64,000 nt of DNA, taken from contig JAUNIB010000001.1 of NCBI GenBank assembly GCA_030523645.1, forward strand, positions 558,001 through 622,000, read 5' to 3'. The DNA comes from Selenomonadaceae bacterium (lineage in GTDB: Bacteria; Bacillota; Negativicutes; Selenomonadales; Selenomonadaceae). Numbering within the stretch: the first letter of the stretch is position 1; each line of letters opens with the position of its first letter. Positions 38,162 through 47,222 of this stretch are shown here, one piece after another. A program made the position numbers and the translations under genes. Under the pieces are notes generated by a model, which saw only the letters and a list, made by a program, of their open reading frames with translations, was not told the origin of the DNA and searched no databases.

Positions 38162-38923
38162 ATGGATATAGATTTTCTTGGCTTGTTAACCCCGTTTAAT
38201 GAGCGGCTTGGTCCGATGGGGGCCATCTTTTTAGCTTCATTTCTCCAGTCCATTACTGGCTTCGGTCTCATGCTGACAGCTTCACCGCTGCTGATGATTT
38301 TTTACGATGCCAAATTTACCGTTCAGATTCTTATTTATCTCGGACTTATTTCCAACTTTATTCAAACCACGATGCTCTGGCGCACTGCGAAGTATGATTT
38401 GATTTTTTTCATGATAACCGGTGCGGTCTGCGGTCAGCCCCTTGGTTTCAAATTGTACCAATTTGTTACTTCCGATCATCTGAAGATTTTCATCAGTGTA
38501 ATTCTTCTCTGTTTTCTTGTAATAAGCCACTTCGGACATCTTCATTTTTCACAGAGACCTCGAAATGCCTTTATTGCCGGTCTTTTATCGGGCATTATGG
38601 CTACCAGCGTAAGTATGGCCGGGCCTCCTCTTATTCTTTATTTCGCCAACGCACAATTGTCGAGGGTTGAACTTCGTTCTACCTGCGTTCTGTACTTTTT
38701 CCTTGTCCAGATGTGCTCTATGGCCATCTTTGTGTTCAATGGCGGAACTAATATGATGGCCGCCGGGACAGAGTTCTTCTATATGCTGCCGGGGCTTTTC
38801 GCCGGACTTTTCTTCGGTCAGATTGCATTCAAGCACACATCGCCAAAGTTTTTCCGTTTTCTCCTCTTTGGAATGCTGTACTATATCTGCTTCCAGTCCC
38901 TTTATACAGCCCTTATAAAATAA
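38162..38923 (+). CDS. TSUP-family (TauE/SafE) membrane transporter
   Basis: Anion transporter-like membrane protein of 253 residues with about eight membrane segments, in two repeats: GPMGAIFLASFLQSITGFG near residue 17 and a second one near 130-145 (GLLSGIMATSVSMAGPPLIL), both typical of TauE/SafE proteins thought to move sulfite, sulfonates or other sulfur/carbon anions. AGAGG precedes the ATG. It points away from tolC; nothing in the context fixes the substrate. Confidence 0.88.
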   Translation: MDIDFLGLLTPFNERLGPMGAIFLASFLQSITGFGLMLTASPLLMIFYDAKFTVQILIYLGLISNFIQTTMLWRTAKYDLIFFMITGAVCGQPLGFKLYQFVTSDHLKIFISVILLCFLVISHFGHLHFSQRPRNAFIAGLLSGIMATSVSMAGPPLILYFANAQLSRVELRSTCVLYFFLVQMCSMAIFVFNGGTNMMAAGTEFFYMLPGLFAGLFFGQIAFKHTSPKFFRFLLFGMLYYICFQSLYTALIK

Positions 38924-38931
38924 ACTTTTCA

Positions 38932-38960
38932 TTGACTATCAGGCATTTCAATAGTAAAAT
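38932..38960 (+). promoter_or_regulatory. Candidate promoter ahead of the corA leader
   Basis: TTGACT (38932-38937) and TAAAAT (38955-38960) are exactly 17 bases apart, 9 bp after the TSUP stop. RNA would begin near 38967 and run through ~340 bases of leader before corA. The next hairpin with a T run begins right at this point, which leaves some doubt. Confidence 0.6.
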
Positions 38961-38963
38961 TTA

Positions 38964-39000
38964 CCAGGCGGAGAAATCCGCTTGGTTTTCTTTTGCTTTT
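38964..39000 (+). terminator. Hairpin with T tract after the TSUP gene
   Basis: CCAGGCGGA pairs with TCCGCTTGG (9 bp, one G-U) around a GAAA loop, followed by TTTTCTTTTGCTTTTTT. It reads as a terminator of the TSUP gene, 40 bp past its stop, but its stem falls at the predicted start of the corA leader. Confidence 0.65.
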
Positions 39001-39023
39001 TTCAGGGCGACTGCCCCTAAATT

Positions 39024-39171
39024 ACACGGAAAGGACGGTGAGGATAATGGACGGTGACCATCCTAATTTATGCGGCTCTTCTGACTATCGATCGAGACAC
39101 TGCAACGAACAACTGATTACCACCATTATTACAAATGAAATAGCTGCCGTCACTTTCCCACCGTACTGTGT
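39024..39171 (+). promoter_or_regulatory. Candidate structured leader RNA (magnesium-sensor-like) upstream of corA
   Basis: Four complementary pairs nest in order: ACAC 39024-39027 with GTGT 39168-39171, ACGGTG 39035-39040 with CACCGT 39159-39164, GTGAC 39054-39058 with GTCAC 39149-39153 and GCGGC 39072-39076 with GCTGC 39143-39147 (one G-U). A local hairpin ATGG/CCAT at 39047-39061 competes with this. The size (~148 nt), a GGTGAGG at the 5' side and the place before a magnesium channel recall the M-box, but M-box core motifs such as GCTAAAGCTC are absent. A terminator follows at 39200. It could be a divergent M-box, a new RNA, or chance pairing over a short ORF. Confidence 0.4.
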
Positions 39172-39196
39172 CTATTCCTGTACAATAGGGATTTAG
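39047..39196 (+). CDS. Possible 49-residue leader peptide before corA
   Basis: An ATG at 39047 opens 49 codons (MDGDHPNLCGSSDY at the start) with four cysteines and ends in TAG four bases before the terminator stem. GGTGAGG lies only 3 bases before the ATG and AAAGGA 11 bases before it, so the ribosome site is imperfect. No family is recognised. It coincides with the candidate structured RNA, so it may be non-coding; a Mg-responsive leader peptide like CorL of Salmonella is another reading. Confidence 0.25.
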   Translation: MDGDHPNLCGSSDYRSRHCNEQLITTIITNEIAAVTFPPYCVYSCTIGI

Positions 39197-39199
39197 TTT

Positions 39200-39246
39200 T
39201 GCTGACCGTTTTGTTTTATTGTGTCTTTCTGTCAGCAGGCTTTTTT
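39200..39246 (+). terminator. Terminator-like hairpin in the corA leader
   Basis: TGCTGAC (39200-39206) pairs with GTCAGCA (39231-39237) across a 24-base T-rich loop, followed by GGC and six T. It lies 63 bases before corA, in the place where a riboswitch terminator would act. Confidence 0.6.
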
Positions 39247-39308
39247 GTTATCCATCATTGATGGGCATATTTTGACGGCATGCATTTTCTGGAAAGGAGC
39301 TTTCCATC

Positions 39309-40262
39309 ATGCTGAAAATTTATCGCTCATTGGAAAGTGGACCGCTGGAAGAGCTTAGCCTGAAGACTCTCCAAAAAGGCGCCTGGATAAACATCATCGA
39401 CCCTACTCCCTATGAGCTGAAAGTAATCGGCAACCTTACAGCGGTAGAGCCGGACTTTCTTCGTTCCGCACTTGATGATGAAGAGCGGTCACATATTGAT
39501 GTCGAAGACAACTCTGTGATGATTTTGACCAATGTCCCGGTCATGCGCACTAATGTAAGCTATGATACCCTGCCTTTGGCTATAATCATCAGTGACGAGT
39601 ATATAATCACCGTTTGCTTGGAAGAGACGCCGGTAATTTCTGAGTTCAACGAGTCAACGGCCAGGACCTTCAGGACCTTCAAAAAGACTCGTTTTCTTTT
39701 CCAAATCCTGTACAAATCGGCAACCTTCTACCTCCGTTATCTTCGTCAGATAAACAAGCTGTCCGACGAGGTCGAGCTGATGCTTCGTGACCAGATGCGC
39801 AATCAGGATATCCTGCGTCTTTTGGAGCTGCAGAAGGGTCTTACTTACTTCAACGCTTCCCTGCGTTCCAATGCGGCTGTTCTCGATAAGCTGCTGAGAC
39901 TCTGCAACAGTCCGACTACAGGCTCTCCTCTCAAGATGTACGAAGAGGACGAGGATCTGCTGGAAGATGTCATCATTGAGAACAAGCAGGCTCGGGAAAT
40001 GGTAGAGATGTACAGTCAGATTTTGGCCCGGCTTGCCGATACCTTCTCTTCCATAATTTCAAACAATCAGAATCTGGTCATGAAGTTCTTGGCTGCCATG
40101 ACCATTATATTGGCTATACCCACATTGATTTCCAGCTTCTTTGGAATGAATGTTGCAGTACCTTTCGCCGAAGTTCCGGAGGCATTTGCCATGATTTCCT
40201 TTATTGCCTTTGGTATTGCAGGTTTTGCCGGCTATTATCTCTGGCGTCGGAATATGTTCTGA
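39309..40262 (+). CDS. corA: CorA-family magnesium transporter
   Basis: Pentameric Mg2+ (or Co2+/Ni2+) channel of the inner membrane. It has 317 residues. A large cytoplasmic funnel domain (about 1-255) is followed by two C-terminal membrane helices; the first ends in the signature SSFFGMNVAVPF near residue 275, and the second is close to the end (FIAFGIAGFAGYYLWRR). GGAAAGGAGC is a strong ribosome site. A ~340-base leader with structure and a terminator precedes it, so regulation by magnesium is likely (inference). Confidence 0.96.
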   Translation: MLKIYRSLESGPLEELSLKTLQKGAWINIIDPTPYELKVIGNLTAVEPDFLRSALDDEERSHIDVEDNSVMILTNVPVMRTNVSYDTLPLAIIISDEYIITVCLEETPVISEFNESTARTFRTFKKTRFLFQILYKSATFYLRYLRQINKLSDEVELMLRDQMRNQDILRLLELQKGLTYFNASLRSNAAVLDKLLRLCNSPTTGSPLKMYEEDEDLLEDVIIENKQAREMVEMYSQILARLADTFSSIISNNQNLVMKFLAAMTIILAIPTLISSFFGMNVAVPFAEVPEAFAMISFIAFGIAGFAGYYLWRRNMF

Positions 40263-47026: not shown

Positions 47027-47165
47027 AAAAAAACTCTCCACAGGGAGAGCTCATCAATCTCTCATCTTATCTCCGGCTCACGCCTTCAACAGGAATTGGC
47101 ACCGTTGCAGTAATGCATGGTTGCCGCAGCTTCACTGGGCCAGTCCCTCCACTGCTCTTGATGAG
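47027..47165 (-). promoter_or_regulatory. SAM-I (S-box) riboswitch with terminator
   Basis: Read on the minus strand. P1 is formed by CTCATC (47165-47160) and GATGAG (47066-47061). Inside are the S-box core stretches AGAGCAGTGGAGGGACTGG, then GCGGCAACC and GGTGCCAATTCC, in the usual order and spacing. The expression platform follows: CTCTCC (47049-47044) and GGAGAG (47039-47034) make a terminator with seven T. GAGAG at the end of P1 can pair instead with CTCTC, giving an antiterminator when SAM is low. It leads metK-metNIQ. Confidence 0.95.
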
Positions 47166-47222
47166 TTCAAGCTGCCCTCATGCACAGGCATTGGGCAACT
47201 CCTCTATATTCGCTTTTCGCTT

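What the first reader, a model, noticed from the sequence alone, without database searches (positions are those of the whole stretch)
38932..39308. Structured leader of corA: M-box-like RNA, new riboswitch, or leader peptide
A well-spaced promoter (TTGACT-17-TAAAAT) precedes ~340 bases of leader. Within 39024-39171 four short complementary pairs nest in order (ACAC/GTGT, ACGGTG/CACCGT, GTGAC/GTCAC, GCGGC/GCTGC), while a local ATGG/CCAT hairpin competes. A terminator-like hairpin with six T lies 63 bases before corA. The size, the GGTGAGG at the 5' side and the target gene recall the M-box, but its core motifs are missing. The same bases hold an open frame of 49 codons. So it could be a divergent magnesium riboswitch, an undescribed RNA class, or a CorL-like leader peptide.
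Basis: partly seen in the sequence, partly recalled or inferred. Interest (0 to 1): 0.65.

Follow-up and report, generated by a model that had tools for sequence, protein, structure and literature searches.

The report
Acidic leader peptide controlling corA
Upstream of a magnesium-transporter gene (corA) lies a short conserved 'sensor' reading frame that begins Met-Asp-x-Asp-x-Pro and sits inside switchable RNA hairpins; it recurs at corA across most families of one bacterial class and probably reports low magnesium through how well the ribosome survives those first codons.

Summary
It holds a leader-peptide gene (39047-39196, 49 codons here, MDGDHPNLC...). Under a fixed rule its start recurs upstream of corA in 91 of 121 Negativicutes upstream regions examined, spanning 17 families. 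The N-terminus is conserved as protein: Asp/Glu at codon 2 always, a second acidic residue and Pro nearly always; codons vary synonymously, with an in-frame 3-nt indel. The rest of the ORF is conserved as RNA. Three consecutive, mutually exclusive helices were found: 1:2 (leader SD/AUG with ORF body), 2:3 (ORF body with the segment before corA's SD), 3:4 (that segment with corA's SD). Cognate pairings beat non-cognate ones (p=1.7e-6, 2.6e-8, 1.2e-6); control combinations do not. This is an attenuator laid out like Salmonella mgtQ, with an MgtL/MgtQ-like ribosome-destabilising N-terminus but no detected homology. Best model: in low Mg2+ ribosomes drop off at the acidic/Pro codons, region 1 stays occupied, 2:3 forms and corA's SD opens; efficient translation favours 3:4. 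Mg2+ sensing is inferred, not shown. The window's own copy is divergent, with ~100 extra bases.

The parts
38932..38960 (+). Sigma-70-type promoter TTGACT-17-TAAAAT of the leader-corA transcript (predicted)
   Evidence: Read directly; similar TTGAC-N16..19-[TGA]ANNNT upstream of 49/91 homologous leaders vs 2.6 expected in shuffles.
39029..39060 (+). Region 1: leader Shine-Dalgarno (GGTGAGG 39037-39043), start codon and first codons; can pair with region 2
   Evidence: Conserved at 83-93% identity in 6 other genera by blastn, all upstream of corA; 1:2 cognate signal p=1.7e-6 over 39 groups; window alone 81/2000 shuffles as good.
39047..39196 (+). Leader-peptide gene, 49 codons: MDGDHPNLCGSSDYRSRHCNEQLITTIITNEIAAVTFPPYCVYSCTIGI; acidic/Pro N-terminus MDGDHP at 39047-39064
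   Evidence: ORF; homologous leaders in 91/121 corA upstream regions in 17 families; synonymous codon pattern and frame openness; no Pfam or NCBIfam match.
39142..39152 (+). Region 2 core (AGCTGCCGTCA) within the leader ORF; pairs with region 3 or, as part of the 39120-39165 arm, with region 1
   Evidence: Folds; class-wide 2:3 cognate test p=2.6e-8; covariation on 16 other-family leaders.
39200..39246 (+). Terminator-like hairpin (TGCTGAC/GTCAGCA, six T), in the ~100 extra bases this copy has between leader stop and corA
   Evidence: Read directly; single copy in the genome; no counterpart in leaders of usual length.
39273..39283 (+). Region 3 (TGACGGCATGC): complement of region 2, upstream of corA's SD
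   Evidence: 2:3 duplex -24.2 kcal/mol, 44/2000 shuffles as good; class-wide test.
39290..39306 (+). Region 4: corA SD (AAGGAG 39294-39299), here inside a local hairpin TGGAAAG-GAG-CTTTCCA
   Evidence: Fold; in relatives region 3 pairs with the SD, 3:4 p=1.2e-6; in the window 3:4 alone is not significant (295/2000).
39309..40262 (+). corA: CorA-like divalent metal-ion transporter, 317 aa, GMN motif
   Evidence: Pfam PF01544 E=8.2e-49; below the TIGR00383 equivalog cut-off (105 vs 200.75 bits); orthologs in 174/189 family genomes.

Best explanation
It is a leader-peptide (uORF) attenuator of corA. The ORF's first ~6 codons encode an acidic, proline-containing N-terminus (M-D-x-D-x-P or M-D-D-x-P) that is expected to destabilise the translating ribosome, more so when free Mg2+ is low. 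The transcript has four segments: 1 = leader SD/start; 2 = 3' part of the leader ORF; 3 = the stretch just before corA's SD; 4 = corA's SD. If ribosomes initiate and drop off early (low Mg2+), segment 1 is kept occupied, 2 is free to pair with 3, and corA's SD is exposed (ON). If ribosomes elongate efficiently through segment 2 (high Mg2+), or none initiate so that 1:2 forms, segment 3 pairs with the SD (3:4) and corA translation falls (OFF). Shown by computation: the conserved translated N-terminus, its corA-only occurrence in the genomes of the class that were scanned, and the three mutually exclusive conserved helices. Inferred: that Mg2+ is the signal, that drop-off is the sensing step, and the ON/OFF polarity. 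In the window's copy the 3:4 step is weak and a terminator-like hairpin may add transcriptional control.
For: Leader start conserved upstream of corA in Selenomonadaceae genera and in 16 further Negativicutes families. A looser pattern in 150 class genomes gave 27 hits, all at positions just upstream of corA. Peptide-level selection: codon 2 is GAC/GAT in 48 and GAA/GAG in 3 of 51 distinct heads; codon 4 is GAC/GAT in 30/31 of the six-residue type; Pro uses all four codons; codon 3 comes and goes as an in-frame indel; frame 0 is open >=24 codons in 48/48 representatives vs 12/48 and 2/48 for the other frames. RNA: cognate duplexes 2:3, 1:2 and 3:4 beat non-cognate (p=2.6e-8, 1.7e-6, 1.2e-6) while 1:3, 1:4 and 2:4 do not; 2:3 covariation (4 of 9 pairs with double changes, 0/500 shuffles). 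Placing a ribosome on the first codons in silico raises 2:3 (0.13 to 0.31), lowers 3:4 and opens corA's SD (0.31 to 0.37, p=8.5e-5), and more than a ribosome on region 2 does (p=0.003). Precedents: mgtQ Asp2/Glu5 with 1:2+3:4 versus 2:3 releasing the mgtB RBS (PMC8092293); MgtL EPDP drop-off at low Mg2+ (PMC11282234); E. coli corL (PMC11552253).
Against: No expression, ribosome or Mg2+ data exist here. The simulated change in SD accessibility is small, and a ribosome at the stop codon is not distinguishable from an early one (p=0.30). In the window itself 3:4 is not significant and the intervening ~100 nt is atypical. CorA falls below the NCBI corA equivalog cut-off, so the transported ion is not certain. 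Part of the codon 4-6 conservation could come from a local hairpin with the leader SD (GGTG/CACC). Most genomes of genus g12 and six other families have corA with no leader detected by the rule. The leader rule was written after looking at the sequences, so 91/121 is descriptive, not a blind test.
Confidence: 0.66

Rival explanations
1. Leader-peptide attenuator as above, but the signal is not Mg2+: another translation stress (charged tRNA level, EF-P or ABC-F activity, an antibiotic) or another metal is read by the first codons.
For: Anatomy alone does not name the signal; CorA-like proteins can carry Co2+, Ni2+ or Zn2+ (established knowledge) and this one is below the corA equivalog cut-off.
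Against: No run of codons for one amino acid; residue 5 varies (His, Arg, Leu, Ile, Tyr, Pro, Gly) while the acidic residues stay, which fits ribosome destabilisation rather than tRNA sensing; the target is a CorA-family transporter and acidic N-termini are tied to Mg2+ in MgtL/MgtQ (PMC8092293, PMC11282234).
Confidence: 0.17
2. RNA-only riboswitch (divergent M-box or new aptamer) in which the ORF is incidental.
For: RNA helices are conserved and covary; the ORF body is conserved as RNA rather than as peptide, since the GGGGAA element sits in different frames (inspection).
Against: Synonymous pattern, in-frame indel and open frame; no M-box hit although M-boxes are found elsewhere in related genomes; no Rfam family in the homologous leaders tested apart from tRNA/tmRNA at the edges.
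Confidence: 0.06
3. Transcription attenuation dominates: leader translation controls the 39200-39246 terminator or Rho, as in enterobacterial corL/mgtL.
For: Terminator-like hairpin in the window; Rho-dependent corL precedent (PMC11552253).
Against: The hairpin lies in bases absent from the usual ~120-150-nt leaders; the conserved class-wide signal is on corA's SD (3:4); weak terminator features.
Confidence: 0.11

Closest known systems
mgtQ uORF of the Salmonella mgtC-mgtB intergenic region (PMC8092293)
   Same: Short ORF with acidic residues in the first five codons, before a Mg2+ transporter gene; helices 1:2+3:4 versus 2:3, with 3:4 hiding the transporter's RBS.
   Different: mgtQ is 8 aa and lies inside an operon before P-type ATPase mgtB in enterobacteria; here 24-51 aa as a rule, in the 5' leader of corA in Negativicutes; no sequence relation seen.
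MgtL leader peptide of mgtA in E. coli/Salmonella (PMC11282234; PMC11552253)
   Same: Acidic/Pro N-terminus (EPDP) tied to Mg2+-dependent ribosome drop-off; alternative leader folds.
   Different: mgtA is controlled by Rho-dependent termination; here the conserved output is occlusion of corA's SD.
CorL leader peptide of enterobacterial corA (PMC11552253)
   Same: uORF in the 5' region of corA whose translation opposes corA expression.
   Different: CorL is poorer in acidic/Pro residues, has a UUG start in E. coli and acts through Rho; no similarity reported or detected.
M-box Mg2+ riboswitch (Rfam RF00380)
   Same: Leader RNA of Mg2+-transporter genes in Firmicutes.
   Different: No match at E<=10; true M-boxes occur elsewhere in related genomes.

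Membership tests
M-box riboswitch RF00380 | Covariance-model match at the gathering score | tested here: not met
   positive control in 11/41 related genomes and in B. subtilis and L. lactis.
Leader-peptide (uORF) attenuators | Conserved translated short ORF with SD upstream of one target gene | tested here: met
   Conservation and codon pattern. Translation itself was not measured.
Leader-peptide (uORF) attenuators | Mutually exclusive helices linking the ORF to the target's expression platform | tested here: met
   in the window copy 3:4 is weak.
IRD-type Mg2+-sensing leaders (MgtL/MgtQ class, functional) | Acidic residues (with Pro) in the first codons | tested here: met
   Asp/Glu at codon 2 in all 51 distinct heads; second acidic residue and Pro in nearly all.
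IRD-type Mg2+-sensing leaders (MgtL/MgtQ class, functional) | Mg2+- and bL31-dependent ribosome drop-off at those codons | not testable with these tools
   Needs toeprinting or reporter assays.
MgtL / MgtQ / CorL by homology | Sequence homology of peptide or leader RNA | tested here: inconclusive
   No Rfam match and no Pfam/NCBIfam match for the peptide; peptides this short carry little signal.
CorA Mg2+ transporter (target gene) | PF01544 match and GMN motif | tested here: met
   FFGMN in the translation.
CorA Mg2+ transporter (target gene) | NCBIfam TIGR00383 equivalog cut-off | tested here: not met
   105 vs 200.75 bits.

The most novel reading that the evidence does not exclude
An independently evolved Mg2+ sensor based on ribosome destabilisation by a nascent acidic/Pro N-terminus, ancestral to most Negativicutes, which controls corA by SD occlusion: the enterobacterial mgtQ logic re-invented in another phylum and for another transporter class.
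Probability: 0.55. Interest if true: 0.8.

Novelty: new variant of a known kind. Interest (0 to 1): 0.66.

Why it matters
Mg2+ sensing through intrinsic ribosome destabilisation is described in the papers read here only for enterobacterial mgtL/mgtQ. A conserved, corA-specific leader in most of a class of diderm Firmicutes would suggest that the ribosome itself is a recurrent Mg2+ sensor. It would also give a defined target for a direct test (Asp codons, 2:3/3:4 compensatory mutants) outside enterobacteria, and explain how CorA, often called constitutive, is regulated there.

Tried and rejected
M-box or other Rfam RNA: rejected. Extra bases as a repeat copy: the 39165-39275 stretch is single-copy in the genome. 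Leader outside the class: the pattern in 299 phylum genomes gave only the window plus 4 hits outside the class; they read MDWDRPQ (83 codons to a stop), MDQDKPF (50 codons) and two frames still open at the end of the locus (MDHDQPQ, MDEDGP); they were not examined for corA and are taken as chance. RNAalifold on a MAFFT alignment of 32 Selenomonadaceae leaders found no long-range helix, probably because loop lengths misalign; the cognate/non-cognate duplex test avoided this. A ribosome parked at the stop codon did not lower SD accessibility relative to an early ribosome (p=0.30), so the OFF state is attributed to transit through region 2 and to refolding, not to a parked ribosome; the region-2 positions were tried after that negative result. 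Literature searches in the open-access library found no description of this leader; subscription papers were not searchable.

Full report
Observation. The listed elements are in the sequence: TTGACT-17-TAAAAT at 38932-38960, the four complementary pairs, the terminator-like hairpin with six T ending 63 bases before corA, and the 49-codon frame 39047-39196. The drawn nested fold scores -13.1 kcal/mol against an MFE of -36.0 and the segment is only mildly more stable than shuffles (z -2.0). cmscan of 38900-39330 at E<=10 gives no M-box; the same model finds M-boxes at other loci in 11 of 41 related genomes.

Conservation. Bases 39000-39200 searched against 60 relatives matched six other genera of the family over just 30-42 nt, the leader SD plus start; each of these matches lies upstream of a corA ortholog. 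Reading frames show why: the conserved stretch is an SD (AAGG..GGTGAGG) followed by ATG-GAY-(NNN)-GAY-CAY-CCN, i.e. M-D-(x)-D-H-P, opening an ORF of mostly 24-51 codons that usually ends 30-80 nt before corA. Of 81 Selenomonadaceae upstream regions 38 fit the strict motif, and most others have looser versions (MEGDHP, MDADHP, MDGHP, MDEHP, MDEYPE, MDDTPLQPEP, MDAGPEP). Forty upstream regions from other Negativicutes families show M-D-V/A/I-D-R/H/L/I-P-S in most. With one fixed rule, written after this inspection, 91 of 121 have the leader, in 17 families; six families show no leader by that rule, nor do the genus g12 regions that were fetched. A strict pattern scan of 84,980 species' genomes gave 49 hits, with Selenomonas, Mitsuokella, Schwartzia, Propionispira, Megamonas-labelled and related Selenomonadaceae or Veillonellaceae titles; 45 were directly confirmed before corA. 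A looser pattern in 150 class genomes hit 27 times, always just upstream of corA. In 299 phylum genomes it found the window plus four hits outside the class, judged to be chance and not checked for corA.

Peptide-level selection. Over 51 distinct heads, codon 2 is Asp (GAC 28, GAT 20) or Glu (3); the second acidic codon likewise alternates GAC/GAT; Pro uses CCT, CCC, CCA and CCG; codon 3 is an in-frame presence/absence; GTG replaces ATG twice. Frame 0 is open for at least 24 codons in 48 of 48 genus/family representatives, against 12 and 2 for the other frames. In lineages that lack the GGTG/CACC complementarity around the start (MDDTP, MDAGPEP) the acidic/Pro character remains, so that local hairpin does not explain it. 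The ORF body, by contrast, is conserved as RNA: the GGGGAA element falls in different frames in different lineages (inspection).

RNA switch. For 86 leaders in 39 groups, duplex energies of a leader's own segments were compared with segments taken from other groups. 2:3, 1:2 and 3:4 are better for cognate pairs (mean -26.1 vs -17.8, p=2.6e-8; -20.6 vs -16.3, p=1.7e-6; -13.9 vs -11.1, p=1.2e-6); 1:3, 1:4 and 2:4 show nothing (p=0.55, 0.77, 0.23). RNAalifold on 16 other-family leaders predicts only 2:3, with double changes in 4 of 5 pairs; a 9-bp version has 85% of cells paired and four pairs with double changes, reached by 0 of 500 shuffles. In silico, a ribosome on the first codons shifts region 3 from region 4 to region 2 and raises corA SD accessibility (0.31 to 0.37, p=8.5e-5 against no ribosome; p=0.003 and 0.014 against ribosomes on region 2). 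The effect is modest, and a ribosome at the stop codon could not be told apart from an early one (p=0.30).

Mechanism. Anatomy and precedent fit Salmonella mgtQ, where Asp2/Glu5 cause ribosome destabilisation and 2:3 releases an mgtB RBS otherwise hidden in 3:4 (PMC8092293), and MgtL, where EPDP causes drop-off in low Mg2+ (PMC11282234). The inferred chain is: low Mg2+, drop-off at the Asp/Pro codons, region 1 occupied, 2:3 formed, SD open. Each signal step is inference. The target is a CorA-family protein (PF01544, GMN motif) but below the NCBI corA equivalog cut-off, so Mg2+ as substrate is likely rather than certain.

The window's copy. It keeps regions 1, 2 and 3 (1:2: 81/2000 shuffles as good; 2:3: 44/2000), but has about 100 extra bases with the terminator-like hairpin, and corA's SD sits in its own small hairpin (39290-39306) rather than clearly pairing with region 3 (295/2000). 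Other lineages (G165, G208, G065, G092, G245) also carry extra bases there. The extra stretch has no second copy in the genome.

Novelty. No paper in the searched open-access library describes this leader. It is a new leader-peptide family and a new variant of a known kind of control, not a new kind.

Noticed in passing
window 47059-47167 (minus): SAM riboswitch (RF00162, 76.6 bits).
   Followed up: no
window 38963-38998: GC-rich hairpin CCAGGCGGA-GAAA-TCCGCTTGG followed by a T-rich run, right at the predicted corA transcription start; probably the terminator of the upstream TauE/SafE-family gene (38162-38923) overlapping the corA promoter.
   Followed up: no
leader codons 6-7 in alignment A1: CTAG is invariant at nucleotide level in 16 leaders from other families although the residues differ (Pro-Ser, Ser-Arg, Pro-Arg); unexplained by either peptide or helices.
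   Followed up: no
L020 (G173) and L023 (G030): The leader ORF has no stop before corA and overlaps its start by 26 nt, which could couple the two translations.
   Followed up: no
genus g12 and families f15, f25, f28, f4, f29, f20: corA present without a leader detected by the rule; in several the promoter-like -10 lies just before corA, suggesting loss of the leader.
   Followed up: partly
window 39309-40262: The CorA protein is far below the NCBI corA equivalog cut-off (105 vs 200.75 bits), so this class-wide CorA may be a distinct subfamily.
   Followed up: partly
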